Of a DNA stretch of 64,000 bases, positions 41,687-64,000 are shown in pieces. This stretch comes from Favolaschia claudopus. Its lineage: Eukaryota > Basidiomycota > Agaricomycetes > Agaricales > Mycenaceae. A model generated the notes under the pieces. It made no database searches, had not been told where the DNA came from, and saw only the letters and a program-made list of their open reading frames with translations. Location of the stretch: contig JAWWNJ010000029.1 of assembly GCA_037176885.1 (NCBI GenBank), positions 868,001 to 932,000 on the forward strand, read 5' to 3'. The stretch's first letter is position 1; each line of letters begins with the position of its first letter. The position numbers and the translations under genes are program-made.

Positions 41687-43225
41687 ATGCAGTCTCCCGT
41701 CGTCAAAGCCAAACCGCTCCCCCATTTCTACACGTCGGGCTTCAGCTCCATCTGGGGAAAGGAGGACACCAAACTGCCGTTCCATTTCGAGGAACGACTA
41801 CAAGAGACTCTAGCTCTGCACGACCCTTCTCTGCCCTTCCCTGGGGAGCCTTTTCCAACGACACTCTACCAAGCACCTGTGTCCGCCGACCACCTGGAGT
41901 TCGACCCGCTTGACCCGCAAGGCAAAGCAGTTCTGGTCCTCACCAGTTCGCGCGAGAAGGAGAGGGAGAAAGCACGTCAAGCGGCGCTGCGCGACCGCAG
42001 GTACCGAACGCTGCAGAGCGCCGTGCTCGGCCTACGGCTGCAAGGGATCAGCCGGTTGTTCACCTCGCGGGCTGTACTCCGAGTGCGCGCGGAAGACGGA
42101 CTTGACCCGGCAGTCACCATCGAAGACCGCCTCTACGACCTGGAGGAAGTACTCGGAGAGGAGTCGAAATTCGGTTTCACCGGTATAGATTGTTGGGGAA
42201 GGTATCGGTTTTCGCTTCGTTAGTTTTTGTTTGCTGAGGCTCGTCAGGGGCGTGAGGGTCGTTGCGTCCGAGAAACGCGTTGCTACGCTTCTAGCAGGCA
42301 ATTCAGGCTATGTCGACTGGGCGAAGAAGATTCTCGCACCTGTCAATGCAGACTTGCTCGAGGAGGCTGCTAAGGTGGAGGGTCGTTCGCCACAGAACGC
42401 GAAACTTGAGTTGACCTCCGGTGTTGGCGCGCGCTTGAATTTGCCCAAGGTTTGTGGCGATTTCTCCACCGGATAACGCGCTCATCGCACGACCAGGTCG
42501 AAACACCGCGTGCATCCAGCCGAGTACTTGACGCGCTATCGATGGGCGCCTTGTTGTCCACGGTTCCCATGAAGCGCATGCTTTCGTATGGTAACAGTAA
42601 GTGTTGGCGGCCGTTAATCATCTGCAAGGCTAAAATCAATAAAGGTGTGCTTGAAACCTACTGCAAGGAGACCTACGACGCTCTCAAGTCCCAGAAAGAC
42701 AAGATGCTGGCAGACAAGCCCGAGGCTCTCTACCCTTGCGAAACCAGCGTTTACTCCGCCATCACCATCAACCTAAACGACCCGCGCGTCTCTTTCGACA
42801 TACTTCAGCGCATCGATCCAGCCGTCTGGTGCATCCTGACCGCTGCCGGCGACTACAATCCCGACCTCGGCGGTCAGCTCATCCTCTGGGACGTGGGCCG
42901 GGTCGTCCGCTTCCCTGCTGGGACCTGTGCGCTCATCCCTGCGGCGCTGGTGCGCTTCTCCTTCGTCAAAGTCCGCCCCGACGAGAGGCAGCATACAATT
43001 TTGCAGTGGGCGGGGGTTGGGATTCGCAGATACTTCGAAAATGGATCTCGGGAGGACGGCGAGTTTGCGATGGAAGCGAGTGCTGATGAATATAGAGCGC
43101 GGGAGAAAAAGCGGCGGGCGATGCATGCTGATGCGTTGAGAACATTCCCACTTGTCAAGGATGTGCCGGAGGGCTGGATGCACTTTGACTATCGTGGCGA
43201 GAATCCACCGCCTAGCTCAGAGTAG
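41687..43225 (+). CDS. TET/JBP-fold protein lacking its iron ligands (element 2)
   Basis: Exons 41687-42201, 42248-42449, 42497-42590 and 42645-43225 give 464 codons exactly, and three intron positions match the relative in element 3. An N-terminal region (RVVASEKRVATLLAG) is followed by PCETSVYSAITINL and a beta-helix fold (ILTAAGDYNPDLGGQLILWD, VVRFPAGT). Where the intact enzyme in element 1 has HRD, this protein has D-x-L; where that has YHSN it has RFSF. All three iron ligands are therefore gone, although the Arg of DERQH remains. A pseudo-dioxygenase or DNA-binding role is inferred. The frame is open throughout. Confidence 0.85.
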
Positions 43226-43594
43226 GAGGCACCGCGTAGCTCGAGGTGGGGTGGTGGTTTTTGAGTACCGCAGCGTCGTATGTGTACCGCGTAGCTCAGA
43301 TTGAAAAATAGTTCTTGGGCGGCGAGCATTTGCCATTAAGTACCACGGCGACCAAGCACCATGGGGGCGTAAATTAGAGATTAGAATCCAAGTAGTGTAT
43401 CTCCCGAGTGTGAAACGCCCAAGAGAGTTAGCGAAGAAGAGAGAAAGAAGGAGAGTGCACTAGGTCCAAGTGCTGAACCTTTGTGCGACGAGAGTCATCG
43501 TCAAGTCACGATGTCACTTATGTCACAATATGTCCTGCAGGGCGAAAATATAACAATTAATTGTAATGGCGACTACATTATGGAGCGCGTTCGA
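43226..43594. other. Spacer between the dioxygenase-like and RMRR genes
   Basis: Contains three short repeats of ACCGCGTAGCTC(A/G)AG(A/G) (43231-43300). No gene. Confidence 0.45.
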
Positions 43595-44143
43595 CTACAG
43601 GAAATATTGGCGGCCACCGGAGACCCAAAGGTAAGGCGTCGAGAGGTATGGGCCGTGTCCATCCGCAAAACTAATGTTCGCTGACTCCACCTCCGACTCG
43701 TCTTCAGCTTCGTAACCATCGTGCTTGTGGGTGGTGGGTATAGCGCGCGGTGGGTAGACTGTAGTTGCCGTCGGACGCGTGGCCCGGGTGATGGGGGGCA
43801 CTTCCAAGACTCTGGATATTTTCTTTTCAGTGAGGGTGGATTTTCGAGCCTGTGCGCGTCTGGAGCTTTCCTGTCGAGGAGAATTGCTATTGATCAGGTA
43901 GAAAGGGACGTACAGTCGACAAATACGCTGCTGTTCGCGTGTACGGCGGGCATTCTCCTGCCGAATTGCTTCAGGCGCGTTCCTGAGTTGGTCGCGTTTT
44001 CTTCCGTGCAGTGTCAGTCAGGAAATGTATAAGGAAAGGGGAATAGCTACATACCGACGCATGCGAAGCTTCGCTCGCTCGTTGATAGCGGTCTGGTTGC
44101 TGACGACCAGTGAGGCGGAATTGGAAGGGAAATTCACTGCCAT
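43595..44143 (-). CDS. Basic RMRR-type protein (element 2)
   Basis: Exon 1 (MAVNFPSNSASLVVSNQ, then INERAKLRMRR) ends at GTATGT near 44054. Exon 2 gives KRDQLRNAPEAIRQENARRTREQQRICR. After GTACGT..CAATAG, exon 3 runs NSPRQESSRRAQARKSTLTEKK to the stop at 43595. The basic helix resembles bZIP-like or YREKN-type proteins and matches the element 3 gene (INEKARNRMRR, RREAIRQAP). Nucleic-acid binding is likely from charge only. Confidence 0.6.
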
Positions 44144-44950
44144 ACTGACCGTTTTCTGTATTCCCAGTTAGCGTCTGCGTTCCGGGTCCGCGGGTCGCAA
44201 TTCCCGCGTTTTGCCATGAAAAAGAGGAGGAGCAACGAAGGAGATGAGTGTAGAGGGGAAGGAAGGGGTGGCAGTGTTGGGATAAGCGAGCGTCGGGATT
44301 GCGTCCTCAATAGTTGACGCTTCGCAGCTGCTTCTCGACTCCAAACTGGCGGGATGGATTATAATTAGCTATATGATTGTTTATCCAGAATCACAGTCGA
44401 GAACCTGCAATATCAAGAACGAAATTGCGAAGTGAGTGTTCGTGATAGCACGAATTTCTACCACAGCGATAGAGAGCGTTTGCGTGGAAGTATAGCGTTA
44501 AGGAAAGTCGGGAGACGACGGGTGGGATTGATACAATAAGAATATGAAGAGATTGAGGGAGGTCAAAGATGTTGAGGTTCAAGAAATGAGTTTAGACGGA
44601 TGAGGCACAAGTCCATAGTGGGATTAATGAGTAGAGTGAGGGTGTTCGTGATTTGGGTCCCTGATTTTCGACAATCTTCCGTCTAATCTGTGGATCGCTG
44701 TAAACCGAGTGCATTCCATGGAGTGTTGAGCAAGTCGATACCAGATCGTCGTAGTCGTCGTCGCCGTCAGTGCTCAGCATCGTGTGTGACCATTTTTGTC
44801 ACTCTCAAATCGATGTGTACGCTTGCAAGATCTCAACAAAACATTATGGATAGCGCAGGATATTCATTGTAACGGCGGGCATATAATACATAATACTCAA
44901 GTGAAAATTGCACCGTACATATCGACAAAAAATGCTAGAGTAAGTCCAAT
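44144..44950. other. Spacer, no gene recognised
   Basis: About 800 bases between the RMRR gene and the next cargo gene. Short minus-strand frames lack splice support and conserved residues. No repeats noticed. Confidence 0.45.
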
Positions 44951-46016
44951 TCAAGCGAGAGACCGTACACGACCGTCAGCGAGCTTCCGATTGAACCACG
45001 CCTGAGCTAGCTCCCTCGTCTCAAACCCTGGCGCGCTGTGATTGGTCAAACCAACAGTGTTGAGGGCGGCCTCGACCCAAGAACGATAAATACCAGGCGT
45101 GATGCCGCGAATCACAGCATACCAGCGGCCAGATGCACCTGCACCCAATGGATTGTTGATGTAGCTGGAGGGAAGGGGTAGAGGAATGGGGTTGCCTCCT
45201 GGTGGCGTGGTGGAGTCGGAGGTCCAACCACGTTCTCTGGCGAAGTCGAGGGCTCGCTGGGCGGCGGCAAAATTGGGAAACGAGCAGAAAACGGCGTCAT
45301 CGTCCCCAGTAACCTCGTCTTTGACGTCGTCGAAATCGGCGTAGATGCCGACATTGCGTCCATAGAAAATGACGTGAGATTTACGGCGGTCCCGTACGAG
45401 GGGGGACTGCTGCGCGGATGGGGAGGGGGCGGGAGAAGCGATATGGGGATGTGTCGATGGAGGGGTAGGGGTTGAAGGGAGACTGGGCTGCGATGCCGAT
45501 GCAGTCACAGACGACTCCGATGAGGGAGCGATGCTGGTATTTGGAGATGGAGGCGGCGAATCTTGAGATACATTCGTCGGTTAGTCAGAGGTTGGAGAGG
45601 CACAATTAGCATACATACCAGTGATCACGAGCTGCGGGAAGAGCGAGACATAGAGCTCGAGCTCTCTAGCGCTTTCCTTTTTCTTTTCCTGCTCGTCTTC
45701 ATCGTCATCCGTCTGATCGCCGCCGGATGAGGTCTGAACTGGCTCGTTGTCGTCGATGGTCTCTTCTGCGGCGCGGGGGTGTTGTAGGGCGTCGTAAACA
45801 CGGAGCAGCTTGGCAATGACAGGCGGAAGGCGACTGATGAGGACCTCGACACCGAGGATGCGAAGTAGTTGGTCGGTTTCCTCGTCAGTCAGTGGGGAGA
45901 GTAGATCGGCGAGCTCCTTGAACGAGAGATGCTGTTTTCCCTGCACGCTGTAGACGGCATGTGCGTCGGCGGCTTGGAAGAGGACTGCGATTTGCTGGAC
46001 AGAGCGTTGGGGCATG
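44951..46016 (-). CDS. Protein with two RNase H1 N-terminal (viroplasmin-like) domains (element 2)
   Basis: ATG at 46016 (MPQRSVQQIAVLFQAADAHA). Exon 1 is helical with an acidic Asp/Glu stretch and ends at GTATGT. Exon 2 holds a Pro/Ser linker and two copies of the small domain: SHVIFYGRNVGIYADFDDV and GRWYAVIRGITPGIYRSW with FETRELAQAWFNRKL. G-x-Y-x-x-(W/F) and the late F-x-x-x-x-x-A-x-x(W/F) are hallmarks of the RNase H1 N-terminal hybrid-binding domain. No RNase H catalytic domain follows. A role in binding RNA:DNA hybrids or dsRNA is inferred. The family name comes from a plant virus protein, but nothing viral is implied here. Confidence 0.7.
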
Positions 46017-46544
46017 GTTGGGGAGAAAGGGAGAGGGAGATGCCGAAATCCGATAGCGGATGGATCAATATGAACCGGGGGTGAGCTGGGTTGCAGGAAA
46101 ATGAGCCGGGAAGTTGCGGGAGGTGTGAAAGACCGATAGAGACGGTAAACGAAGGCCGAAAAAACGCGGGCTGGTGATTGCCACGGAACCAGCCACAACT
46201 CTGGTTCCGCGGCATGAGAATATTGAGAGATATCTGTATGATTGAGGAGTCCTGACGCTTCTATCGGGGACAGTATCCAGGAGGCTGCAAAGCAACCATT
46301 GATTTGCACTGCTTCGGGGAGAAATGGCCGGAGGAAGAAGTGGTGCGCTGGCGAGCAATGTGGCTACATGCGAACTGGATGGGTAGTTGCGCCAGTGAGC
46401 GAGCGACGCGGCTGCATGCAAAATACTATTTGGCTGCGCCCGCGATGGACGCTGCTAGATGCACTTATTTGAAGGGCGGGAGGGTTTAGTTGGAAAATGG
46501 CCGTCGAAGCGATGAATTGTTCTTGGGCATCGTACGATGTCGGT

Positions 46545-47045
46545 GATATGTGGCCGTCGAAGGAATTTGGGAACGGGGAAAGCGGGTGACCTGGCTACAT
46601 GCAGGCAAAATGATTTGCATGGCCCAGGCTACATGCAGGAAGATGATTTGATTGGACAATCTGTGGGGCCGGTTGACCGGACGAAGAGGAAGCGATGTCG
46701 TCGGTGGACATCGGAAAAGATTTGGGAACGGGGAAAGCGGGTGACCTGGCTACATGCAGGCAAAATGATTTGCATGGCCCAGGCTATGTGCAGGAAAATG
46801 ATTTGATTGGAGGATCTGTGGGACCGGTTGACCGGACGAAGAGGAAGCGATGTCGAAATTGGATCGTCTGTGGATATCGGAAAAGAATTTGGGGAAGCGG
46901 GTGACATGGCTATATGCAGGGAAATGATTTGCATGGCCCAGGCTATGTGCAAGAAAGTGATTTGATTGGACGATCTGTGGGCCTGCCGGTCGCACCGGAC
47001 GAAGAGGAAGCGATGTCGCGTCGGTGGACGTCGGAATTGGAGGAC
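46545..47045. repeat. Three tandem ~155-167-bp minisatellite units
   Basis: Units begin near 46566, 46721 and 46888 (TTTGGGAACGGGGAAAGCGGGTGAC-like, the third shortened). Each holds GGCTACATGCAGG twice or a variant, TTTGCATGGCCCAGGCTA and GGACGAAGAGGAAGCGATG. Non-coding; ORFs across it merely follow the repeat. It separates the two RNase H1 N-like genes. Confidence 0.8.
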
Positions 47046-47444
47046 GGGGGTATCAGTGAATGTGCTGTTTTTGGATTAATGATTCATCGCTACTTTTCGC
47101 TCGCGGGTTTGATTAGGTTGAGAAAGACCGGGACTTAGACGCAGATTCAAGTTGCTCCAGGACTTGGTTGGGGCATGAAGGGAAAGCAGAAAGCAAATGT
47201 ATTTTTTTTCCAACGGGGGGTGTGCGAGGCGGAATAAACAGCGCAGTGATGCGACTGTTCAGTGTATTTAAAAAAAGAGGGGGAGGAGGGAAGGAGGAGG
47301 AGAGAAGCGGTACGAGAAGCAACGAGCAAAGTAAAGCGGAGATTTTTGAGCGCCGTACGACGACGCAGAGGCAGGCACAGCTAGTTAGAAGAAAAAAATT
47401 GAGAAAGACAGAAATGACAGAGGTAGTGAAAGATACTAACCAGC

Positions 47445-48098
47445 TCAAAGAATTTGGACACCGCCCCAGGTGAGCGCGGAGTTGAAGGCGTAAAGCGCAT
47501 CCTCCTGCCTTTCATACGCCTTGCGAGCGCAATGAGGGACCCCGCTGATGGCCCATTCGCAGAGAGCGCTGAGGAAAACGAAGGTCAGGATTGGCTGCGA
47601 GGAGAGGAAGGATACATACTATTGATCCACTACGCCGACGAAGCGACCGCGAAAGATCGCGTACCATTCGGGGGCCACGGTCGCCTCCTCGACGGGTGCG
47701 AGGGCCTCCTCAGGGATGTGGGAGTAAACTTCGTTGGCGCGATACGGAGCTTCGGAGCGGAGCAAGGCGTTGAGGGCGCGGGGCAGCCCAGCTCCGGGGG
47801 TCTTGACGACGGCCTCCTTGGGGGCTTCCTTGGGGGCTTCCTTGGAGGCCTCTTTGTCTTTCTTGGCGGGGACGGGGGCGGGAGAGGCAGCCGTAGCCGC
47901 AGGAGCAGTAAACTGGGGTTGGGGAGCAAGGAGCACGGGGTAGGCGCCGGCAGCAGGAAGCATCACTGGAGGCGCCAAGTGTCAGACAACATGATTGTAG
48001 GCAAGGCAGAGGAGAAAGAAAAACTCACTAGCAGTGGGCTGAATGCCGACGAGAACGTAGGAGGCTGCGGGAGCGGCAAAGACGGGGGCGGCAAACAT
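47445..48098 (-). CDS. Small protein with one RNase H1 N-terminal-like domain (element 2)
   Basis: Three exons: MFAAPVFAAPAASYVLVGIQ from ATG 48098; a middle exon with a Lys/Glu/Ala repeat (KEAPKEAPKEA) ending EWYAIFRGRFVGVVDQ; and, after GTATGT..CCTCAG, a last exon YALCEWAISGVPHCARKAY..DALYAFNSALTWGG to the stop at 47445. The joined part fits the pattern WY.(F)xG...G(V/I)xx....A...V.GVP.A..K.y...EdAL..F of the viroplasmin/RNase H1 N fold. About 185 residues. It is the second gene of this domain type in element 2, same strand as the first. Confidence 0.65.
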
Positions 48099-48437
48099 TG
48101 CGAATTGGAGGGAGTCTTTGGAGGACGAGGTAAATGGGGGAGGAGAGGTCGACAGAAGGGGAGGTAGAGTACGTGAAGGTGTTTTATAGGCGGAGATCTG
48201 CGTTTGGCTCGATCTGGTAAAGCAAATCTAGATGGACTGGCTCGCGAGTGGGTGATGGCGCTGATGGATTGGGACGACCAGTTTCTTCTTAAAGTTACTA
48301 CTACCGTTCGGCACTCGCCCCCGAAAATTTCATCTGTACCGCCCAAATTGTGAAGACGCTCGGTAGGTTTGACGCATTGGCCTCAAAACGTGCAGAGGCA
48401 GCCGCTGATCTGGACTCAGCCTTGGTTTTTTGTCAAA

Positions 48438-51400
48438 ATGGCTAAGGGACGCGCCTCGAAACGGTCTGGGACACGGAAAAGAACTTGGACGCGCAAAGAA
48501 AAGAAGGACCGGCGAAATCTCAAGCTGTGGGCGGAAGGTGCGAGGGAGGATATTCTTCGACCACATCTTCCTGCCTACGCGGATGCGTTGGAGCGGGGCT
48601 GGCGGGCGGAGCGGGATTATGTGCGCGAAGTCTGTAATGAATTCCATGCCCGGATTTCTTGGAGGTTGGCCGACGACGAGGAGCCAGAGCTACCGTTGCC
48701 TGAGTACGATGCTCTGGCTCCCCGCGAGATCGAGGAATTGAGTGAAGACGAGGTGGAGGCGAAGCGGACGCGAATTGAGGAGATGAACGCGGTAAGCTCG
48801 ACGGACTTTGATGTTGCGCGTGACTGATCAACTCTGATTCGCTGCTCTATTTCTCTCCTTATTCTCTCCTTATTCACCATATCTAACTATTCATCGTCTC
48901 TCGTTGGTCTGGATATCTTGTTCACGGTCTGCCATCTGCCGTTTGTCTGGGACTCTGGGTTTCTTCTTGACTTTGCTTGCTATTTCCGTGGTCCGACTTA
49001 GCGAATCAATCGCTGGCTCAAATATCGTGCTCGCAAGATGCGACGTCCTTCGATGCGCGGCGACAGCATGAAAGATCCTTGGGCGCTTTACCTCGCGAAA
49101 CTCTCGGGCGTCAATGCTCCTCCGAAAGCTCGTCAAGCATTCCAGCAATTCATGCGGGAATGCTATGACACGGATATTAAACCTGTGGTTGATGCTCGGT
49201 GGAACGCGTCTTGTGTGGCTGGCGACGGAGTGACGCTCAAAACTACCAAGGGTCCAGATGCTCCCTTCCGCGCAGCCGTTGCGCGCGAACTATTCAAGGA
49301 GCTGTCTGACGAGGCGCAGAAGAGCTTTGGGCAACGTGCGAAAGACGAGGCAAAATCAGAGCGCGAGGAATACACTGCTAAGATGAAAGCGCCCGTATCG
49401 AAGGCGCCAGTGGACAAACAGAAGTAAGTTTCACTCTTATTTACTTTGACGATGCGGCCTGAAGCTTTATCCATTAGATGTATTGATAATCTTGGCACGT
49501 TTATGACGGAAGTAATGCGTGGCGTTCATGAACGCACTGGCCTATCTGGCTTCGCTGTTTTTGGCGGCCCTGTCCCGAATTGCGACGGAGAGCTTCGAAC
49601 GGTGACGTGAGTCATGAATATTCTCTCATTTTTCAGACGGCTAACACCACTATAGTGTTTCGTATGGCCGCAGCCACGCCCCAGATTCTACCTTGTTCCC
49701 CGACTGGGCGAAACCTCGGTTCAACAAGGAGGTGCTGGATTTTATGAAGGAATGGTTGCCGCTTGCGTATAGTGAGTCCTCGCGCACAAGTGGTGGGTAG
49801 ATATGACTGACCTTGTGATGCTATCAATAGCGCCAGCAGAATGTGCCGAAACAGCGTTGTCGAACGAACCACTCTCCGATGTCTTGATGAACGCTAAATA
49901 TCAGTTCGACGTCAGAAAGGTGGTGAGGCGAGGTCTAGGCCTGGACGTCTCGGACTCGGAGTCGGACTCGGACTCAGAGTCCAACTCCGAGTCTGGTTCT
50001 GATTCGGACTCTGATTCTGAGGAGTCCGACTCTGACTCGTCGTCGTCGTCGTCCACATCTGATTCAAGCGAGGCAAGTTCCGACTCAGACGAGGACGAGG
50101 GAGGATCTAGGGGGAGGAAGGAGAAACGGGCGAGAAGGGAGCGTAAGAAAGCGCGTGCCAAGGCAAGCGCGGCTGCAAAGAAGGAGGCGAAGCGGAGGGC
50201 GAAGGAGAAGGGGAAGAAGGGGAAGGGGAAGGAGAAAGCGAACGGGAAGGGGAAGGAGAAGGAGAGCCAAGAGAAAGAGAAGCGCAGCAAGGATGGGAAT
50301 GGGTCGAAGGAGAAGACTGATGAGCAGGGGAAGAAGAAAGCGGACGGGAAGGAGAAGAAGAAAGCGGACGCGAAGGGGAAGGAGAAAGCGGACGTGAAGG
50401 GGAAGGAGAAAGCGAACGGGAAGGGGAAGGAGAAAGCGAACGGGAAGGGGAAGGGGAAGGAGAAAGCGGATGGGAATGGATCGGCTGCGAGAAAGAGAAA
50501 GGGAGACGATGCGGGTGACGACGAGCGGAGGAAGAAGAAAGCCAAAGGTGCGGATGGCGCCTCTGGCGGTGCATCCAGCGGTAAGTGCTCAACGATTCGC
50601 TTTCAAGACCTCACTAACGCTGTTGCCTGTACAGGGGGGTCAAACAGAACGGCAGGTGCGTCGGGGAATCCCTCTGGCGGTGCATCCAGCGGTAAGTGCT
50701 CAACGATTCGCTTTCAAGCCCTTACTAACGCTGTTGTCTGTACAGGGGGGTCAAACAGAACGGCAGGTGCGTCGGGGAACCCATCGCAAGACGAACCGCC
50801 CCCTGCACCTCCTGCAAATCCCTCGCAGGATCCGCCGCTGCCGCCGCCGCGTCCGCCCCCAACTCCACCCCATCGGTCTCCTTCCCCAGAACCACCTCCG
50901 CCCCCTCCCATAACACCACCGCCTGCGTGTCCACCTGACGCGCCATCGTGGTTCGTCAACATGTACAAGGAGATTTCGTACAACAAGACCTCAACTAAGT
51001 CGCTTGGCGACGACTTTCACTCCTTACTGGATGCTTTGTGCCAGCTGGAGAAGGCGTACGGATGGGCTCAAGGGTCGGGCTTGAAGAATTTCACCACGCC
51101 TTCGCGACCGCCCCAAGTCGCCTCGTGGATATCGTCTGGGCGAGGTACACGAAAGGGTACGATGTCGGGAGGTGTTGGGCCCTCGATTTCAAATGTCGAC
51201 GCTTTTGCAGAGTCGTGGTGGGACTGGTGGACGAGCATGCAGCCGGCTTGGCGCACGCGTAACGCTGGAAACGAAGAATGGTTTGAACGCGGAGCGTACC
51301 CCGACTTCGAGAAGTCCACTTGGGAAACCTTTCGATGCCCTGGGCAGAACGGAATGATGTGTTTGGTCGCGTGTCTATTGTGGTGGGGAACGAAATTGCA

Positions 51401-51512
51401 CAGCAAGGGGCGCGAAGTCAGCGAGTCATGGGTCGAGGCGGCGAAAGATTTACAGTGGGTGATTTTGGGGTTGACTGAGGCAGAGAAGAAGGCGGGGTCG
51501 TCGAAGACTTGA
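48438..51512 (+). CDS. Large charged cargo protein (element 2)
   Basis: Multi-exon gene from ATG 48438. Exon 1 (48438-48791, 118 codons) ends EEMNA, and exon 2 from 49002 continues RINRWLKYRARKM. Exon 2 ends at 49423 and exon 3 starts at 49478. Two more short introns lie near 49610 and 49775. Conserved pieces: PWALYLAKLSGVNAPPKARQAFQQFMRE, GFAVFGGPVPNCDGELRTVTV, SHAPDSTLFPDW. Then come a Ser/Asp tract, a Lys/Gly/Glu tract, a duplicated intron-exon unit, a Pro-rich linker and a C-terminal domain SWWDWWTSMQPAWR..CPGQNGMMCLVACLLWW. I know this as an Agaricomycete family of unknown function. It occupies the same right-end plus-strand place as the charged gene of element 1 but is a different family. 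Confidence 0.75.
50560..50779. repeat. 111-bp tandem duplication containing an intron
   Basis: Copies start at 50560 and 50671. Each includes GTAAGT..CACTAACGC..TGTACAG (54 bases, 50581-50634 and 50692-50745). Both introns lack stop codons and are a multiple of three. Confidence 0.9.
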
Positions 51513-52466
51513 TGCGTGCTCACACGGACATATGTAGAATATCGTATTGCTTTGCTAGTTGCTTTCGCTAGTGATTTTGCTAGTTGCTTTGGTATTTCTG
51601 CGCTAGACTGGGAGCTTTCTACCTCTTGTGAAATGTGAAGTTGACTTGATTGAGTTGGGGCGGCGAATTGACTTGGGATAAAAAACTTCTATGAACCTGA
51701 CTTGTAAATAAAGATGTTTGGAAATTGGCGTGGTAGATTGACTTGTGAATACAAAATTTCAACCAATCTGAATCTTGGAATCTGAAGTCAAACAAAATTC
51801 GGTAAGTAAATTAAGTAGAATAATGTTCGAGTGAGGCAAACTTGAGATGGAGGGCACAGCCACAAATGTAACGCGTGTCACATCCCCTCGTCGCTCCACT
51901 TGGACTTGGAATTTTTGTCTACATTCATCAATGGAGAATTGGACGAAGGTCAATTATTCGAGCATTATTTCAACGGAGCATTGACACTGACACAAATTAA
52001 GATGAAGTTGAATTGGAGACTATAGTCAGTAGTACATAAATTAGGATTATTGCTGACATGACAAAATCATTTTTGCAAAAAACCGACCCCCCCCCGCAAC
52101 AAAGCTGAAAAAGTCACAATTAGAAGCATCACTAGACCAATAAAATGCAAATGAACCGGTGATGGCCGCTGAGTGCATAGCCACCATTTCCATCAGAAAA
52201 TCTTTGACAGTGTATTCGCAACTTGAACACTCGTTATAGAAGAACCTAGATGCTATATCAGGAATGGGACTTAGAGCTGAAAATGTAAAAACAGATCATG
52301 TGCGGGCCAGCAAAGATTCTGGCTAGATCCAAGAAAAGAGGCAATGAAGGCTTCAGCATTGAATAAAGTCAGGAGCGTGGCTACATTCAGTCCAAAAAGG
52401 CTTCCTATGCCAAGGCAGAAGAACTGTGTGTGGGAAGTCTTACTTTGTGGAGCTAGCCAGGCCTCG
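51513..52466. other. AT-rich 3' flank and right end of element 2
   Basis: No gene recognised. CTAGTTGCTTT is repeated near 51555-51590. The candidate right inverted repeat begins at 52467. Confidence 0.45.
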
Positions 52467-52511
52467 GGTGCAGCCAATCCAAAAGACAACTAAGTCCACT
52501 GGCTAAGTCCA
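52467..52511. repeat. Candidate right TIR of element 2
   Basis: Inverted copy of 35892-35936, ending CCACTGGCTAAGTCCA. Followed after one base by TACAT, as at the left. Confidence 0.6.
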
Positions 52512-52588
52512 GTACATTTAGTCTTTATATTACATCTAGGGCTCTGATTTTTTTTGTATGTGAATATATTGGCAGTTCCAGCGTACAA

Positions 52589-55020
52589 CTATTTGAGATT
52601 AAAAATATCGAACACTCCGTGCGGAGCCGCAATGCGTACATTTTCGGAAAGGCACAGACTTGAAAAGTGGAAGACACTGTATTTATCCAAAGTGAACCTC
52701 ACCGCAACAGTGTTGGGACCACTACAATGCGTAACGAAAGGATCCGTTTCACCGTAGCAACCCCGGCGAGTGAAATCTCCAGTCACGTCCGCACCAACCA
52801 CGACGACTCGTTGCACCATCTCAGCCAATGTGCGGCCGTCCAAACCGATGCGGCACGGGCGTAAATATCTGCGGTCAATAGGGTGTTTTGTGCCTCCGAC
52901 CGTCAACCCATATACGTCTATTTTGTCTGCTTTGCGAGGTCGGGAAAATACTTTGCTTGTGTCTCGAGCAGGAACGTCGCCGTCCAGCAACAAGTAACCA
53001 CGTCGACCCTCCATTTCACGAACTTTAGCTGACAACGCGGGTTCGTCGGCGACTCCCCGGACGACAATGTCGAGGCGTTTGTGAGAGACCCCAGGAACGC
53101 AAATCCATTCGCCAGTCGTTTCACCTGAGCTTGGTTTGAGTCAAGAACAATCCAAATGACGACAATTTACCTTCCAGTTGTGGAGGTACTTCAAAAGGCG
53201 GAGACGACGGGGACGGGCAGGGCGTACAGGGACGGGGAGGAGGCGACTGGGGGGGGAAGGCAGCGAACTTCAGCTCGGGCGTTACCAGATGCTGGTGCCC
53301 CCGGAGAACCTCGTGCGGCATCGCCCGCGTGTTCAACAGCGGGACCATTGTCCTGAGTGGAAGTTTTAAAAAAACAGACAACCATATAAAGATTGGTGGA
53401 ACACCCACCAGTGATGTGCGACGTTTTCTATGGGGACATCCTGGACGACATCCGGCCCCCCCGTTCGGCGTAGGGTGAGAAGCAAGCCTTCGTGATCGTT
53501 GTCGGCTTGAACGAGGGCATCGCGACCCTGAATTTTAATGTTGTTGAGCCTTGAGTCGTTCACTGAAATGGCTGGATAGTAAGCCTGAGCGTAGCTTCGC
53601 AACTTCTGTGTCCACTCGTCTTCTACCGATCGTAAGCGCAACTCCCGAGCTCTGCTATTGTACACCCCCACGACCGTTCCTCTGAACCCCTTCAAGGAAC
53701 CCTTTGCCACATACGTCACGTTTAAACCAATGTAGTGTCGAGCTACGTCCGGGTGAAGCAGCTCTACATCTTCCTCTGCCATCAGCGTATGTGCAACGCC
53801 CGCTGTGTGAGGCGGAGCGAAAGTCGTTGAATATGGCACCCTTTCTTCAATGGAATCGGGAAGCAGCAACGAACTGGTCTTTCGGACACTGGCGGGTACT
53901 CCGAAAGTGACGATGTCGCCCGCGTGGTTGAAATCTACGTCGCATGCCCGAACCCAGAACTGCGCATAATCAGCGTCGGGGATGAAGAAAATTGAGAAAT
54001 CAAACACACCAGACGACCGTCTTGCCATTGTTTCGAAGGACGCTTTAGTTCAAGCCTGTTCAGCTGACCGCAAGATGAGATGCTGGGAGACAAGAGAGTG
54101 ATCAAACAATTAACACATACGTCGAACAACTCGACCAGACCGCGACCAGAGTCAACGGTCATCACAGACCCGCTCCTTCCCTGGTGCGCCCCACACCGCA
54201 CACGTACAAAATCTCCTTCCTGCCACACACGAGATAGTTGATCTACGGTGCAGGGATCGTACACCGCTCCGTTCACGTTCTTGAACAGGACGACCTCGGT
54301 TTTGGCGTCAAGGGCATGGACGCGGCCTTCCACGCCCTCAACATATCCTTCGACGAAGCGTATGCGGTCGCCCACTTGAAGAACGTATGAAAAATCCAAA
54401 AGGTGCCGCCGCAAGTCGCGCATTTCTGGAAAAATACCGTCCGCTGCGATGTTGGGGTCGTAACACCCGTTGTACGCAGGGAGCACTCTTGCTGTGTGCT
54501 GGCTTGCAGAACCGGCGTCTGAGACATGGATTCCAGCTAGATACCCACTCTGCCCTCTGTAGCGACCGGTCACTACTACGACGCGATCTCCGGGTCTGAG
54601 CGGTGGTCCCCGCGCGCTTCCAACCAAGCGTCTGAGTTCCACATGATGACTGCGAGCAAACGGAACGAATTCTTCGTGCGACGCTATTTGTAGAAGCGCT
54701 TGGTGGGGATAGATCTTCAAGGCCTGACAATCTTCCAACGTGGGGGGCTTGACCAGCTGGACAGTATGTCGGGGCTTAGACAGGTGAAAGATCGGGGGCT
54801 TTCTCCCAGGCAAAAAAATGGCGTTCGTGTTAATCACGAATGCAAGACGACCTTTGAATTTGCCCCATCCTACGCGCACCCACTGCCCCTTCTTCAACGC
54901 GTGCTTAGCTTCTGTGGCCGGAAGCTCCAACCAAAACGGCAAAGTAGACCGCTTGGGAGGAGGATGGTTTGCGGCTCTGTACGCGGCTAACGCGCGGGCA
55001 TTGTGATGGTTGAGGTCCAT
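52589..55020 (-). CDS. KOW-repeat protein (Spt5-like repeats)
   Basis: Starts at ATG 55020. The N-terminal exon carries at least four KOW-type strands: KKGQWVRVGWGKFKGRLAFV, RPGDRVVVVTGRYRGQSGYL, QVGDRIRFVEGYVEGVEGRV and QEGDFVRVRCGAHQGRSGSV. After an intron near 54110, the next exon (ending near 53410) adds AKGSLKGFRGTVVGVY. A Pro-rich exon and then EWICVPG..HKRLDIVV and MVQRVVVVGADVTGDFTRRG finish it near 52589. KOW modules bind nucleic acid or polymerase in Spt5, but no NGN domain is seen. The C-terminus is shared with the gene at 28842-30257. Expanded in Agaricomycetes, function unknown. Confidence 0.75.
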
Positions 55021-55624
55021 TTTTGGGGGAGGGGGAGGTTCGGGAAAGGTGACGACGCGAGTAATGCGCTCTGTCCTTACTACTCTGAAGTTGGCGAAAT
55101 CTGTAAAATGCCTTCCATTGGGTGTCCGTGCGTTCGCAAGAGAAACAAAGGAAACACACCAGCTTTCTCGAGCAATTTTTTGGCCTCCGGGTCATCCCTC
55201 GCAGCCCTTTCTCTCAGTTGCGATTCCAGCTCGGCCTGAAACCGCCTATCTGCAAGTAGCGTGTCAACAGTAGAAGTACAAATTAGACTGTCTGCCAGGC
55301 TGTAGCCTAAATGTAGAATGTTTATTTGCGTGGAGCCAGCCACCCACCAAGCAGGGGTAAAACATACAGCATTTTGACTTATCACCAGGTCCTAGCCACC
55401 TCCAGGCACCGCCTAACCTTCCCCTACATGTCCCACGGCATCAATTTCGGCGAACACTGCGCATCACTGGATGTAGAGGATCAAAAACAGGAATCAACTG
55501 CCATAGAAGCCAAGAAGTGACACTTGACAGCCCTCCTCATTTGGAACAACTCCGCCATGCAGCCACAAAAGGAAATTTTATAACAGAGACGCAAATTCCG
55601 ATATTAATGTAACCAATTTTGTAT
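55021..55624. other. Spacer, probable left end of element 3
   Basis: No gene recognised. By analogy with elements 1 and 2, the left terminal repeat of element 3 should lie here, but its partner would be beyond the window, so it cannot be found. Confidence 0.4.
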
Positions 55625-58600
55625 TTACTCTGCCTCAATCATTTCTACGATCTCCCGGTCCTCCGCAATTGCCGCGCGCACAGCCTGCGACGCTGATGTG
55701 TCCCAAGCGCTCCTGAAGCGCCGAGCAATTTGGCGGGTCATTGCAGCCTGCCGAGCTGCATAAGCTTGGACTCCTTCCCGGACATCCTCCCTCACCTCCC
55801 GCCCAGACACCGCCCGCTCCTCCCACCAGCCCGCGCGCCACGCCAGGAAGCGCAGCACCCTGCGCATTTCCTCCCGCAACAACTGCACCTCCTCAACCCA
55901 CCTGTCCCTCCTCGCCTTCGCTTTGGACCACTCTACCCTCACAGCTGTATCACAATGTGAGTATGTATCCATAGAATCTCAAATGCAACAGCGCTCACCA
56001 TCCCTTAACTCCTCCTCATCCCCTCCCGGCCCTCCGCCGCTCGTCCAGATCCATGACATCTTGTGCTTTTTCTTGGTCTTCCCCTTCTCCTTCGACCTCT
56101 TCCCTGCTGCCTTGGATATCCGACGCTCGCGCGTTTGCGAACCAACATTCCCCAATCTCTGCCGAGCGGCCGTGTCGTCCTCCAATTCTTCCTCAATACG
56201 CAGGTCGTCAGCCCGTAATTCTCTCCAATCGCACTCCCCCAGCCCCACCAGCCCTACCAGTGCGTCCCGGGAACGTTTGTACCCCTTCGCAATCCACTCG
56301 ATTCGTTCCTCCACTCGCTTAACCAATGTTGCAGCGCGCGTAGTCCCTCGTTGACCCACTGCCCCTTCTCGCCAATCCACCAAATGGCGTTTCGCTAATA
56401 ATGACCGTCGCAGCTTTGCCACGGAATCCGCCAGCACTCCTCGGCGCAGACGCGCCTCCCTCTCACGCAACTTCTCCGCGCACACCTCCCTTCTCCTCGC
56501 CGGCAATTCCGAGGGCAGATAAATCCTCACGCCCTCTGCCAGCGGAGGCGGCAAATCAGGATTTCTGGTCTCTTCGTCTTCCAATAGCTGCTCCCCAGCG
56601 CCAGGCATGTAAACCCCTTGCACCTTGCGGAACCGCGCCAGCTTGACGAAAAACGACCGACGGAGCTGGGCCACGCGTTCACTCTGGTCCCCGACCAGCA
56701 GTGGCCGCCCTTTCAGCTCTCGGCGTATCCGCAGCCTTCGCATTCCGTCAGTCCTTCTCGCTGCACAAAACAGACAAAATAGCACTCACTGATCCGTCTC
56801 CAACTGCAGCCCCGCCACGAGAAATGTGCTCATGCTTGTGGCGTGCAGCCTCTCTTCCCCAGCCCCAGCCGAAGCCTCGTCCAACTCCTCCTGCGCGAGC
56901 TGCACCCGAATCGCAGCAGCTGAATATTCTACTTCCATACCACTGTCAACTCCATCCCCAACGCCCGCGGAATTCACGAACCTTTGGATTCCTCTGCTGG
57001 TGCATATGGATTTTTCGATGTCCTATCCCGCTGCCAACAGTCGATCACACTTTGCCACTCCTCTCGTGTCTCCTCCTCCAGTGTTTCGTCCACTTGCTGG
57101 AAACCCGCGACTTGGCGGTCACGTTCGTCGATGGCGACCACAAGCTTCCGCGGGAGCGTCATACCTGCGAACAGTATCAGTGGACCGCAATACCCGCTCT
57201 ACCCTCGTACTTACCCAAATTTATGTTTTTCTCAAAATTCAGAAAATCGACCTCGTCTTCGATAGCGTCCGCCCTTCCACCCCTTCCTTTCTCCCTCGTC
57301 GCCCAAGCCAAAGGATTCAGCCTCGACCACACGCGCTCGACGCCCTCACCATCAGTTCTCCCCACCCCAACCGTGTACGACAAAGAATTCTGTACTTGGC
57401 ACGTCCGCTCATGCGCTGCGGCGTGCCAGACGGGCAGCGCGAACAGTACGGTGATGCTCGCCAAGTCGAGACGCAATTTCTCGGGCATCTCCTTCAAGCG
57501 TAGGGGAAACTTAATGCGCCATTGGCAGGCGATATCGTAAGATATCGCCAGGTACATCGCTGTTATCCCCAGCACCGAAGAGAGCAGTATATAGTCCATA
57601 TTCGCGTATCTAGCCCAACAGTCAGTCGCCATCCCTTGTAATCCAGCGCTGCTACTCACCTTTCACCCTTCTGAAGATCCCCCAGCCCTTGAGGGCGAAC
57701 TACTTCATGCCGAGCGCAAACTACGCCCCCGACGCCCGAACATCGCAGGCCGGTCGTGACCCGAGTGTCCTTCTGTAACAACGCCTGGAAAGCGACGCAC
57801 GTACTAATCTGTAAGTCTCATTTCGTCAGCCCATCTGCCGCTGCGCCTACCAAAATCATAACCCAAACATAGACTAACTCACGTCTTCCTCACCCACATA
57901 TCCTCATAGGTGCTCGCGATATTTCTTCTCCTCCACCATATAACCCCATCCCGACCCCAACGGCGGGTCATCCTTCTCGTTATGCCGCAAACGATTTCTC
58001 AGACGGAAGTTTGCGTCCATCGCCACGATTAAGATAAACAGGAATCTGCAAGTACGTCAGAAAGGCTAGGAGCATTTTGAGAACCCACTCACTGAAATTC
58101 GGGCGAGACTTCGCGCCAACCCTCCGGCAGATTAATCCCGTCGTGCGGGCAGGCCCAACAGAGCAACGCACACTCCCCTGCCTTCGTACCCTCCACTCCG
58201 CGCTCGTCGTGTCCTCGACCTGCCCGCATCAGACGCTGCAGAAACGCAAATTGGCGGGAAATCAATCCAAATGACTTGTAACAGTCCTGTACACCGGTCG
58301 TCAGCGGCCACCATGGAACAGACGTCGCTCCGCACTCACCGGTACAGAATGCAGACCTGCAGCGTCACTACTCCGCTCCACCGTTTTAATGAAATCGTGA
58401 ACGGTCAAATTCCCTACAACGTTGAGCAAACGGAAAATCTTCAAGGTGGCGATGGTAGCGCAGGTGGCTGGATCCACCGTTGTCGCGGGATACCAGCCGT
58501 TCCGCAAAAGCTGCTGCAGATTGTTTGCGTGGTCGGAGACATCGCAGCCGCAGTATCTGTACTTGATGGTGAAGATGTTTGGGAAGTGCAATACCACCAT

Positions 58601-59365
58601 CTCGCGCGGGTGGGAGGCGGGACGCGGGCAGCGAAATCCCCCGTGTCCCAACTGGTAAACACAACCTAAGGATGCCAGCGATGATTTTACCCAAAACCTT
58701 CCGTTCCAGCGCTGAAGTCCTCAAACCGTCAGCCGCAGTACAACGTAGTCAGCAAGGGGAAGCGTACACACCTCCACTGAATGCAATGGCATTAGCTCGT
58801 GCCTGGAAACCACACAGGCCCTGCATTGAACGAAATCTCCACATTCATCGCAGCGCACTGGAGCCTCCCCCGCATCCAGCGCTGAGGAGCAGCACGAACA
58901 TTCAGCCGCTGACTTTCCGCCGAGACCCTCCCTCCGCAGCAGCTCGTCCAGAAACAAACCGCTCAGTGGTCGCCACACCTTCATGGGATCATCCTACCCA
59001 TCTCTTGTCAATCCTATCTCCCCACCCAATAAACAATCACGTACCGAGCTGTCGTATCTTTTTCTCTTCTCCCCTGCGGCACCGTCCTCCTCCCCCTCTC
59101 CTGATTCCCCGTCCAAATCCAAGCCGTTAAGGCCCTCACGCAGGGGGACCCAATCGCCAAACGCATCTTCAAGCTCAGACGGATGCAGCTTCCGTCGTTT
59201 TGTCTGCACGTTGACGCTGACCCGGTGCCCACGCCGACCGTCTTTCGATGGTGTGAACTCGGTGTCGTAGGTCGTGTCGTTGGCGTGAGATTCAAATTCC
59301 ACAAAGGAGTCGACACGGTCGAACCGTCTGCCTGGCCGAGCGGGCGAGACGTTGAGGGTATCCAT
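55625..59365 (-). pseudogene. KDZ transposase, CxC2 type, with one in-frame stop (element 3)
   Basis: Same exon plan as the element 2 transposase. MKVWRPLSGLFLDELLR with CSCC..CDECG..CRAC is the CxC2 cluster. It is followed by RWYPATTVDP-type residues (GWYPATTVDPATCATI), CWACPHDGINLP, AMDANFRLRNR, SYDIACQW and GRTDGEGVERVWSRL (likely D, D and E), then MSWIWTSGG and VEWSKAKARRDRW. At 57904-57906 (minus strand) a TGA interrupts KKYREHL/GYVGEED where the element 2 protein has an Arg-containing stretch. CGA to TGA is the simplest change. The rest is open. A frame-preserving intron around the stop was considered, but the flanking residues are conserved. Confidence 0.85.
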
Positions 59366-59778
59366 TGCAGTCGTATAGTACTTCCAGTAGCAGTCTTAGT
59401 AGCGGAAACCAGACGCTGGTGCGTTCGCAAGCCAAAGCCAATCGAAGTAAGAGCAAGCTGAAAATACGAACGGGGAAAGCCGCGCTGCCGGCAGCCCAAA
59501 GAGGATGATTTCTAGCCATAGCCAAAGCCAGCCAGCCAGCCATCGTCGACGCACACAGCGGTTCCAGCTGGTTCCAGCACTTCCAAAAGACGAGGAGGAA
59601 AAAGCGTGTATTTGATAACGTAACAATCAAGTGTGTGGGAAAACGAACTTCTTCCCGCCACGCATATCCTCTGAACCCTACCCTACGAATATCACCACAA
59701 CGACGACGAAGAAACTACCACCAAGACAAACGACTACCCAATGTACTCTTCCCCCCCAACCCTCAACATGTTAACCGC

Positions 59779-61093
59779 TCAGTTGAGCGCGACCACCATG
59801 GTCCTAAACTTCTTCACCACCACCGTCCCGTCCAACGCCTCGAAAGCAAAGGTCTTACGGGTACGCAAACACAAGTGCTTACCGTCAACACACCCACACT
59901 CTACGTAACTCGCGCCGCCGATGTTCACGAGCTATCCAAACGCGTCAGTCGACAACCTGGAGCACCACCCTCAAACTTACCTGCACTCGGTGGGTCGCAG
60001 GAGCGGCCGCGGCCTTACCCTTACCAGCGGCGGCTTTCTCCTCCCCAGCAGCAGCGCAACCCACCTTCTGCGAAGGATACTCCACGTCTACCATGCGTTC
60101 TCCCAAATCCAGATCAGCGACGGGGCTGGGCGGAACGGATTGGAGACTGGGGATGGGGCTACGATCGGGCGAGAAGAGGCTGTCATCATCCTCGTCCTCA
60201 TCCTCGACCGCCGCAAGCAGGGAGGCCGGGACGAACTGGAAGAACGTGTTGTCGATGTTCCTGCGGGTCTCGCGTAAGCACAGTTTTCTTCTCAGGAAAG
60301 AGTAATGGCTCATACCCTCTGACAGCACTCATCGCGAAGGCCTTGCCGGTCTTGATTTCCTCAGCGGCGTCCTCCGCGAGGTCTTTGGCAATGGCCTTGT
60401 CCGCAACGACCCCAGCATCCGTGGAGGTATGCGCCGTCTGCTCCGGACGCGTGCCGTCCCAGATGATTATGTCTTGAAGCTTGAGGCCTTCGTCCCCGGG
60501 GGTCCAGTCGTCGTCAGAGTCCGTGTGGCTGGAGCGGCAGGTAAGTTACGAGTCGCATTCTCTCCCCAAATGAACTTACTAATCCCATTCCTTTTCTTGC
60601 TGCTCAGCGCGATAGAGGGCGACCGCGTGGGCATTTTTGAGGTACTGACAAGAGATATCGTACGAGGCACCGGATCTGGCGTGGACCTCCTCGTCGTCCT
60701 CCGCGTTGGCGCGCTCGGGATGTTCTTGCTCGAGGTGGCGGCGACGCCAGCCTCTGACCAAACGGTCCTTTTGCACCCTGCATCCGCAACGATGTGAGCG
60801 TCACCGCAGTCGGCGTTAGAAGCAGCGAGAGATGACATACGGAGGAAGGAGGGAGAGTACAGAGGTCACGTCGACCTGGTAACTCAAGGCCCTTTTAATG
60901 TCATCTGTCGGCGAGGCGGATAGTCAGCGAGAGGTGGACCGCAGGCGAAGAGCGTCTTACCGGCGTCGCCCATGACGGTGTCGGCACCCTGGTTTTGGTC
61001 GGGGTTGGTGGCGGCCGACGCAGGGGTCGAAGGTGGACCGTTGTTCACCGTGGCGGAGACGGCGCTCGCGGGAGTGTCGATTGCAGAGTTCAT
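59779..61093 (-). CDS. CGCVDG-motif cargo protein (element 3)
   Basis: ATG at 61093 (MNSAIDTPASAVSATVNNG). Internal exons read CRVQKDRLVRGWRRRHLEQEH, then NAHAVALYRAEQQEKEW, IIIWDGTRPEQTAHTSTD and a long acidic exon (VEDEDEDDDSLFSPDRSP) ending at GTAAGT near 59985. The last exon gives VECGCVDGKHLCLRTRKTFAF and GTVVVKKF, to a stop at 59779. RRRHLEQEHPE matches RQRFLESGHPE in element 2, and the C-terminal CGCVDG module matches residue by residue in spacing. Function unknown. Exact borders of the middle exons are approximate. Confidence 0.6.
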
Positions 61094-61532
61094 GATGGTG
61101 TTGGCGGCAAAAGACAGACTGTGAACGTAGAACGGGACAGAGAGCAAGAGGGAATAGAGAGCGAAGAAAGATAAACGACAGAGGCGAGTGACCTGCATTT
61201 CCTCAAATTTTGCAGGAGTCTTATACCGATTTGCAGGACCGAGACAACCCAGCTCGTACCGGCTCGGTTTCGCAACGACCCATGCAAGCGAGCCTTCAGC
61301 TTCTGATATCCCAATTCGGCATATCGTCAGAGCCAGCCGACATTTGGGATCCTCAAACCAATACGCGTGAAAATGGGCTCGATTTGACCTCAAGCCCGAT
61401 CCACCGCCCGATTTACCCGTCCAGCTGGGGCTGCGCTTCGCCTATCTGTTTCCCTCTCTCTGACTTAAGCACCTACGCCTCCAGACGACCTCCCATTTCC
61501 CCCCCCTCCCCTCCATACTCCCTTCAGCAGTT
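61094..61532. promoter_or_regulatory. Divergent promoter region of element 3
   Basis: About 440 bases between the CGCVDG gene (-) and the dioxygenase-like gene (+). Element 2 has the same divergent arrangement (41386-41686). The stretch is pyrimidine-rich just upstream of the plus-strand start (61480-61530), common in fungal promoters. Confidence 0.5.
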
Positions 61533-63143
61533 ATGTTTCCTCCCATGCCCCGTCGCTCGCTCTCCTACACCCTCGCACGGGTCGCCGAAGTCACCCCTCC
61601 ACCACTGATCCCCCGTTTTCAATTGTCTGGCATCGACCCTCGACTTGCCAGCGAATCGACGCACCTATCTTTCGACCTCGTAGAACGCCTTCACGAGGCC
61701 CTCGCCCTTGACGACCCCTCGCTCCCGTTCACCGGCAACCCCCTCCCCGACGAGCGTTATCTTGCTGGCGAAGTCACCATTGTGCCCCCCGCGTCAGACA
61801 GGCCAGTCCGAGTTGTCGTGCCAGCCCAACAAAAGAGCCACGAACGTGCGCGCATGGCCAGATTACGCAAACAGCGCCACCTTCGCCTGCTCGAAGCCAT
61901 TCTGCAGCTGCGGGTGGAGCGCCTGTCGCCCAGCAACGTCGTGCGCGTCCCTGAGCCCGGGGATTTCGACTTCTCCGTAATTGAAGATCGCGACTACGCC
62001 TTGGGGGAAGTGGTGGGTCCAGACTCACGCTTCCATTTGAGACGAACCCACTGGTCGGGCAAGTACGTCCGCCTTCCCACTATGCCCGTGCCTCTGCCCT
62101 CACTGACTTGTCTTCTTTTTCCTTCCCTCATTTCAGAGACGTACGCGTCATCGCCTCAGAGCGGCGTGCCGTTACCCTTCTTGCTGGTTCCGCTCAAGGC
62201 TACGACTGGTCGTCCGACATCATTAAGCCCGTCACCGCCCAGCTCGACGAGGAGGCCGCTGCGCTTCGGGCTCGCAATGGACCTGACCACCCGCTGGTCA
62301 TGAGCGTCGGAGTCGGCACTTACTTCAATGAGTGCAAGGTACGTTTGAGGCCTCGCGTTGTCTTCGCTCTCTAACGAAAGTCCTTTACTTCAGGCGAGCG
62401 AAACTCCGCTCGTCCCCTTGCCCCGCGAGATAGGAGATCGCGCGCAGGACGCCCTCGCGTCGATGAGCCTGCTGTCAAGCATTCCCATGAAACGCCTCGT
62501 CTCGTTCAGCAATGGTGAGCTCTCTCCCTAGCCGTCGCACGCTTCTATCCTCACTCTCGCCGCAGGTATTTTTGAGACCTACTGCGTGAAGTCTGCCCGT
62601 CTTCTCAAGGCTCAGAAGAGGGAACTGCTTGCGCACGACCCGCAGGCGCACTTCCCCTGCGAGACTAGCGACTTCTCAGCTTTCACTTTCGAGCTGGGTG
62701 GTCCCCACCGCCGCATGAACCACCGCGGTCTCCCATATACTTACGAGCCGGGCAGCTGGATCATCATCACTGCTCTCGGCGACTACGACCCCACATATGG
62801 CGGCATGATCATTTTGTGAGACTTGGGATGGGTACTTCATTTCCCCCCCGGCAACTCAATCCTCCTCCCGGCGTTTATCCGGTATTCTTTCGTCGCTGTT
62901 CGTCCGGGGGAGACCAGATACTCCATGATCCAGTGGGCGGGGTCTGGTATCCGTCGATTCTTTGAGAATGGGAACATGGACGACACCACTTTCGCCGTGT
63001 CGGCGACGGAGGAAGAGCATGCCGCTCGCGAACTCCTTCGTCGCGAGGCTCATCTGGCTGCTATCGGAGCCTTCCCTCGCGCCGCCACCTTGCCCACTGG
63101 CAAAGTCGAGTTCCCATACAACGGTGTAAACCCCTTATACTAG
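61533..63143 (+). pseudogene. TET/JBP-fold protein lacking iron ligands, with one in-frame stop (element 3)
   Basis: Exons 61533-62062, 62137-62338, 62394-62514 and 62566-63143 total 477 codons. Exon 2 is the same 202 bases long as in element 2, and all intron phases match. Shared blocks: RVIASERRAVTLLAG, FETYC, FPCETSDFSAFTFEL, ITALGDYDPTYGG, HFPPGNSILLPA, IQWAGSGIRRFFENG. HxD of the intact enzyme is G-x-P here and YHSN is RYSF, so no iron ligand remains. A TGA at 62817-62819 replaces the conserved Trp of the IL-W-D segment (TGG to TGA). Downstream coding remains intact, so the stop is recent. Confidence 0.85.
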
Positions 63144-63990: not shown

Positions 63991-64000
63991 AGAATGCGTC

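What the first reader, a model, noticed from the sequence alone, without database searches (positions are those of the whole stretch)
41687..63143. TET/JBP-fold proteins that lost all iron ligands, conserved in two elements
Element 1's enzyme has HRD, distal YHSN and the Arg. The proteins at 41687-43225 and 61533-63143 keep the fold, exon phases and a special C-terminal block (WAG.GIRR(Y/F)FENG), but have D-x-L or G-x-P instead of HxD and RFSF or RYSF instead of YHSN. Because the two are diverged yet share these replacements, this looks like an old, functional pseudoenzyme clade and not decay. Such a protein might bind modified DNA or block demodification.
Basis: partly seen in the sequence, partly recalled or inferred. 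Interest (0 to 1): 0.8.

Follow-up and report, generated by a model that had tools for sequence, protein, structure and literature searches.

The report
Iron-less TET proteins in fungal transposons
A mushroom's jumping genes carry many copies of a protein built like the TET enzymes that oxidise methylated DNA, but no copy read has a complete iron site and selection has still kept the protein, so it probably does a non-enzymatic job for the transposon.

Summary

In its own 264.6-Mb genome (Favolaschia claudopus by its proteins) the family has at least 64 places; I read 55. None of 55 has the full triad; 45 of 55 are open across exon 4; dN/dS is 0.09-0.19 in eight independent pairs. All 31 live-type copies scored keep HxD and His (dN/dS 0.01-0.12). 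Dead and live form separate clades, largely tied to separate KDZ lineages. A second ligand-poor type (38 places, 7 read) goes with a third. So this is a maintained pseudoenzyme lineage of transposons; C itself is a broken copy. DNA binding, or helping the transposon, is inferred only.

The parts
41687..43225 (+). Protein B, iron-less TET/JBP-fold protein, 465 aa, exons 41687-42201, 42248-42449, 42497-42596, 42645-43225; proximal slot S-x-D, distal RFSF, 2OG-Arg position Gln
   Evidence: open frame; dN/dS 0.19 (CI 0.13-0.29) against copy L010 over exon 4
61533..63143 (+). Protein C, same family, exons 61533-62062, 62137-62338, 62394-62514, 62566-63143; proximal slot H-x-G, distal RYSF, 2OG-Arg kept; broken by a stop
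62817..62819 (+). in-frame TGA at the conserved Trp of the LILWD strand of C
   Evidence: Trp in the C6 copy and in 52 of 55 family copies
36207..39824 (-). KDZ-type transposase exons of element 2, divergent from B (CxC2 domain at 38723-39232)
   Evidence: CxC2 E 3.8e-31; colinear with element 3
55658..59329 (-). KDZ transposase exons of element 3, divergent from C (KDZ domain at 57180-57662)
   Evidence: KDZ E 6.3e-35
55265..64000 (.). element 3, transposon of 16.3 kb that runs on beyond the window to position 71585 in window numbering; 7-bp target-site duplication AGCGTGT; second insertion on contig C6 with duplication ACCTGCC
11764..13198 (-). E, TET/JBP-fold enzyme with intact HRD, YHSN and Arg (core ORF 11764-12633; upstream exon by comparison with P0005), used as the live comparator
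5118..17975 (.). element 1 that holds E, bounded by 664-nt perfect inverted repeats (5118-5781 and 17312-17975)

Best explanation
B and C belong to an old, selectively maintained lineage of TET/JBP-fold proteins with an incomplete iron site. They are encoded by one lineage of KDZ DNA transposons and inherited together with its transposase. SHOWN: homology and fold, absence of the full triad in all 55 copies read, separate clade, purifying selection on the family, regular divergent linkage to the transposase, 7-bp target-site duplications for element 3. INFERRED: with no complete iron site the protein does not run the oxygenase reaction; it kept the fold (a basic N-terminal helix by my reading of the sequence, the barrel, usually the 2OG Arg, an aromatic residue in the distal-His slot) and serves its element as a non-catalytic DNA-binding factor, most likely on the element's own methylated ends or promoter. 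The 103 or more live-type matches in the same genome may have made its own catalysis dispensable.
Against: No DNA-binding, expression or iron-binding data. dN/dS is about two to three times that of live copies (0.01-0.12), so constraint is weaker. Both copies of element 3 examined have a broken gene although they are near-identical insertions, so it may be dispensable in cis. Scattered ligand loss also occurs in the live family elsewhere: 10 of 123 database rows have one ligand replaced and 7 have gaps there. The linkage has exceptions: 15 of 64 places unpaired, 2 live-linked KDZ genes among ranks 0-61. The N-terminal part and the proximal loop of the P0001 model are of low confidence, and P0001 is a gene model of a damaged copy (L060). 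B itself was not modelled. L018 has His and Asp and L014 a distal His, so residual metal binding in single copies is not excluded.
Confidence: 0.6

Rival explanations
1. One reading: the dead protein flips and holds a methylated or oxidised base, with the aromatic residue that replaced the distal His stacking on it, and so blocks oxidation and repair or marks the element's DNA.
For: The aromatic Y/F at the distal slot is present in 51 of 55 D1 copies (the exceptions are L014 with His and the broken copies L042, L064, L071) and in 7 of 7 D2 sequences; fold kept.
Against: No structure with DNA; base-pocket residues were not compared with CcTet; the proximal loop is poorly modelled.
Confidence: 0.25
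2. Partner or regulator of live TET or of the KDZ transposase through protein contact, without DNA contact of its own.
For: Regular linkage to one part of the KDZ family; a family C-terminal block; many live-type paralogs in trans. Precedents for inactive partners of DNA-modifying enzymes: DNMT3L and fungal Mta9, named in a figure legend of PMC13297926 (passages only).
Against: No element with both a live and a dead TET in a fixed arrangement was seen: spacing and orientation vary.
Confidence: 0.2
3. Plain decay of transposon passengers that lost function.
For: C is broken by a stop, its near-copy by a frameshift, and 10 of 55 exon-4 copies are broken; single ligand losses occur in the live family too.
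Against: dN/dS 0.09-0.19 between diverged intact copies; near-invariant new residues; single clade.
Confidence: 0.08
4. Still an enzyme with a different metal site (for example His plus Asp plus water) or a metal-free reaction.
For: One ligand residue of three is kept in many copies; 2OG-Arg kept in 48 of 55.
Against: Which ligand is kept differs between subclades, 20 of 55 keep neither proximal one, and the distal His is replaced in nearly all, unlike a re-used site.
Confidence: 0.07

Closest known systems
CcTet of Coprinopsis cinerea (TET/JBP dioxygenase, PDB 7w5p, 8jkk, 7vpn)
   Different: CcTet has His326, Asp328 and the distal His and oxidises 5mC and 6mA; the D1 family lacks the triad, and 12-13% of aligned residues are identical.
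TET+ DNA transposons of fungi, AG/PU/PE types (Kojima 2025, PMC12730594)
   Same: A TET/JBP gene carried by a KDZ transposon with a 7-bp target-site duplication (given there for Kyakuja).
   Different: Those types are described as enzymes (HxD, or HxE in PE). The words Favolaschia and inactive do not occur in the main text, and I saw no iron-less clade in the sections read.
Inactive TET/JBP paralogs of C. cinerea (46 genes, 32 likely active, as cited in Kojima 2025)
   Same: Catalytically doubtful fungal TET/JBP copies are already known.
   Different: Given there only as a count; here a whole lineage lacks the triad and is under purifying selection. The 2014 papers I tried were not held.
2OG-oxygenase-fold proteins with altered triads, such as HxG/A halogenases (recalled, no call)
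   Same: Loss of the acid ligand on a 2OG-oxygenase fold.
   Different: Halogenases keep both His; here the distal His is gone.

Membership tests
TET/JBP fold superfamily (B, C and D1) | barrel fold closest to TET/JBP | tested here: met
TET/JBP dioxygenase (enzyme) | HxD plus distal His iron triad | tested here: not met
   0 of 55 D1 copies have all three; 31 of 31 live-type copies scored do
TET/JBP dioxygenase (enzyme) | 2-oxoglutarate-binding Arg | tested here: inconclusive
   Arg in 48 of 55 D1 copies, including C; Gln in B; binding not testable
TET/JBP dioxygenase (enzyme) | match to Pfam Tet_JBP PF12851 | tested here: not met
   no Pfam family at E up to 1 for B, the N-terminal part of C, or E; of 58 members of A4, 1 matches Tet_JBP at E 0.046 and 9 match 2OG-FeII_Oxy_3, best 0.0036
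TET/JBP dioxygenase (enzyme) | oxidation of a methylated base | not testable with these tools
   needs purified protein
KDZ DNA transposon (elements 2 and 3) | KDZ transposase with CxC domain | tested here: met
   KDZ E 6.3e-35 in a segment of element 3, CxC2 E 3.8e-31 in a segment of element 2; the two are colinear
Kyakuja | 7-bp target-site duplication | tested here: met
   element 3: AGCGTGT in the window copy, ACCTGCC in the C6 copy; element 2 not tested
Kyakuja | CA..TG termini without terminal inverted repeats | tested here: inconclusive
   element 3 starts CAACAG but ends GGGCTC
Kyakuja | place in the KDZ transposase tree | not tested
   no reference transposases were aligned
PE-type TET/JBP of Kojima 2025 | HxE in place of HxD | tested here: not met
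   E has HRD; no D1 copy has HxE at the W-anchored slots

The most novel reading that the evidence does not exclude
A transposon lineage turned a DNA-methylation eraser into a non-catalytic reader or shield: the iron site was replaced by a conserved aromatic slot (YSF), and the protein, made together with its own transposase, recognises methylated or oxidised transposon DNA. A second type (NR-D/E with Y/F at the distal slot) on a neighbouring transposase lineage would have taken the same route.
Probability: 0.3. Interest if true: 0.88.

Novelty: new variant of a known kind. Interest (0 to 1): 0.72.

Why it matters
Transposon-borne TET genes are thought to help elements escape methylation by oxidising 5mC. 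A large lineage that gave up the iron triad yet stays under purifying selection says the protein does something besides catalysis. It offers a natural separation-of-function set for asking what TET-fold proteins do without chemistry, and it warns that counts of fungal TET genes can overstate demethylating capacity. Dead and live types sit in one genome, largely with separate transposase lineages, so the comparison is directly testable.

Tried and rejected
Dual-TET elements: five of six copies of one live subtype lie 7-15 kb from a KDZ gene of the dead-linked ranks, which suggested elements carrying both. Rejected: spacing and orientation differ between copies.

HxG halogenase-like site: considered because C and many relatives read HRG. 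Rejected because the distal His is missing too.

dN/dS of 0.60 for C against its C6 copy is an artefact: the pair differs by 3 substitutions and one indel in 1611 nt, and the frameshift misaligns codons. The 0.80 and 0.54 pairs also involve damaged copies and were not used.

A first reading that the proximal His was conserved (H 45 of 55) came from MAFFT aligning the GGPH His; the Trp-anchored count replaced it. In one search the distal H for L071 comes from a frameshifted stretch (one search reads T).

Of 55 rows, 4 hold an H.[DE] string somewhere in the proximal segment (L013, L018, L021, L059, where L064 gave no letters); only L018 has it at the aligned slot, with Tyr at the distal slot.

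Homologs elsewhere: two protein searches scored only the about 8000 candidates with most shared words and found two further family members, both F. claudopus. By contig and sequence both are gene models of damaged copies (P0001 = L060, P0002 = L042), so databases may under-report the family and absence elsewhere is not shown. No fungal genome other than this one was searched.

Sequence libraries gave no convincing TET match for the family (weak ones are told in Membership tests).
Full report
WHAT IS THERE. The window is fungal and lies at C29:868001-932000 of a 264.6-Mb, 460-contig genome. E is 99% identical (284 of 286 residues) to a Favolaschia claudopus protein, and the contig lengths given for P0005, P0001 and P0002 equal those of contigs C22, C79 and C159, so I take it to be that species' assembly. 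Protein B (41687-43225) and protein C (61533-63143) have four exons each with introns in the same places and phases 2, 0, 1. B is open for 465 codons. C has an in-frame TGA at 62817-62819 in place of the Trp of the LILWD strand. The two are 41% identical over 466 columns and match E (28% and 33%; E-values 3e-23 and 1e-27).

LIGANDS. B exon 4 finds 150 matches in the genome (150 of 252 candidates scored, so a lower bound). I assigned 64 to the dead family (D1), fetched and read 55, and for the other 9 have position and identity only. Anchored on the Trp after the HxD strand, the proximal-His slot is His in 27 of 55 and the acid slot Asp/Glu in 9 of 55; both are present in one (L018), neither in 20, and all three ligands in none. 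B reads S-x-D, C reads H-x-G. The distal column is Tyr 49, Phe 2 (B and L010), His 1 (L014), Ile 1, Thr 1 and gap 1 of 55, the last three in broken copies L042, L071 and L064. So each window protein may keep one ligand residue, but a different one. The 2OG-Arg column is Arg in 48 of 55 (C yes, B Gln). Of the 35 other fetched copies, all of which score higher with E, 31 could be scored and all 31 read H-D-H; four cut or frameshifted ones (L086, L088, L092, L093) were dropped. Against a perfect contrast: among 123 other rows of the database alignment, 106 read H-D-H, 10 have one ligand replaced and 7 have gaps, so single losses do occur in the live family in other species.

CLADE. With ligand columns left out, B, C, P0001 and P0002 form one side of a branch at SH-aLRT 100 among 78 proteins. 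With genome copies, dead and live separate at 100 (89 rows in the tree, 8 left out as too short). In the careful tree (75 rows; broken copies and 6 live rows with alignment slips left out) D1 (38 rows, 100/97), live (30 rows, 96/95) and the second type D2 (7 rows, 100/99) are each one side of a branch. The root is not inferred, and the program warns of long branches meeting.

SELECTION. 45 of 55 D1 copies (38 distinct proteins) are open across exon 4; L019 and L020 among them end eight residues earlier than B. Ten are broken: L035 (= C), L042, L043, L056, L058, L059, L060, L061, L064, L071. An exon-1 match exists in 49 of 50 loci, 47 of them without a stop, and an exon-2 match in 39 of 50, none with a stop. 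The eight independent pairs of intact copies with dN under 0.25 (dS 0.60-1.25) give dN/dS 0.09-0.19, highest upper limit 0.29; B against its nearest copy L010 gives 0.19 (0.13-0.29). Eight live pairs give 0.01-0.12. So the dead family is constrained, more weakly than the live one. Residues conserved at 90% or more in D1 that differ from the live majority include the Tyr and Phe of YSF and the Gly of QWAG. Copy numbers may include haplotype duplicates.

TRANSPOSON CONTEXT. Elements 2 and 3 are colinear; transposase segments are 54-84% identical (41-44% in the two outermost), the TET-like protein 37-43% in matched segments. Pfam finds KDZ in element 3 and CxC2 in element 2. Element 3 starts at 55265 and ends at 71585 in window numbering, with 7-bp duplications AGCGTGT; an insertion on C6, 99.0-99.7% identical in the two outer parts compared, has its own duplication ACCTGCC. 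In the C gene the two copies differ by 3 substitutions and one indel in 1611 nt, and each is broken in its own way. Genome-wide, 49 of 64 D1 places stand divergent from a KDZ gene, 47 at 4.4-5.1 kb; for live-type places it is 18 of 38, 15 of them at 3.3-3.7 kb (129 of the 150 KDZ rows were used, so pairing is undercounted). Ordered as (best E-value to C's KDZ first), ranks 0-61 hold 47 KDZ genes with a D1 partner, 2 with a live one and 13 with none; ranks 62-110 hold 2 with D1; ranks 111-128 hold 17 with a live partner and 1 with none.

A SECOND TYPE. The KDZ genes in between led to D2. Seven sequences read (L104-L110) have no His in the proximal segment (NRD or NRE) and Tyr or Phe (EYTF, EFTI) at the distal slot. 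Thirty-eight places match strongly; 33 of 38 are divergent from a KDZ gene at 6.1-10.4 kb, with ranks 57-107. D1 and D2 share the aromatic distal slot, and by identity to C's KDZ their transposases lie nearer each other than the live ones, which suggests one shared loss; the TET tree does not decide it.

LITERATURE. Kojima 2025 (PMC12730594; abstract, sections 18, 23 and 26 and search passages read) describes TET+ DNA transposons of types AG, PU and PE as enzymes, gives 7-bp duplications for Kyakuja, and cites 46 C. cinerea genes of which 32 are likely active. A 2026 review (PMC13297926, passages only) mentions transposon-encoded TET/JBP as yet to be characterised; the passages on 'inactive' concern other proteins. 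Library searches (otherwise listings only) showed no report of an iron-less TET/JBP clade. The two PNAS papers of 2014 that I looked up by DOI were not held, so prior mention there is not excluded.

CONCLUSION. The finding is real and larger than described: a maintained pseudoenzyme lineage carried by transposons. Function is inferred.

Noticed in passing
L104-L110; 38 places listed: A second ligand-poor TET-like type (D2: NR-D/E, Y/F at the distal slot) linked to a separate KDZ lineage at 6.1-10.4 kb.
   Followed up: partly
G000 genome-wide: Large TET/JBP load in one genome: 38 PF12851 places (22 over cut-off), 103 live-type matches, 64 D1 and 38 D2 places. Some may be haplotype duplicates.
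   Followed up: partly
window 5118-5781 and 17312-17975: 664-nt perfect inverted repeats with tandem 90- and 110-nt subunits bound the element that carries E.
   Followed up: no
window 837-4745 (-): 1302-aa ORF that reads by eye like a Helitron-type Pif1 helicase; not tested.
   Followed up: no
window 26194-26503 and 46565-46981: Tandem repeats of about 155 bp at two places in the window.
   Followed up: no
P0001 (L060) and P0002 (L042): The two database proteins found for this family come from damaged copies whose gene models skip the lesions; no intact copy was among the hits.
   Followed up: yes
L018, L014: Single copies with H-D-D at the proximal slot (L018) or a distal His (L014) inside the dead clade; neither has the triad.
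   Followed up: partly
database proteins, aligned: Scattered single-ligand replacements in live-type proteins of other species: 10 of 123 rows (P0020, P0033, P0057, P0064, P0074, P0094, P0095, P0098, P0099, P0108).
   Followed up: no
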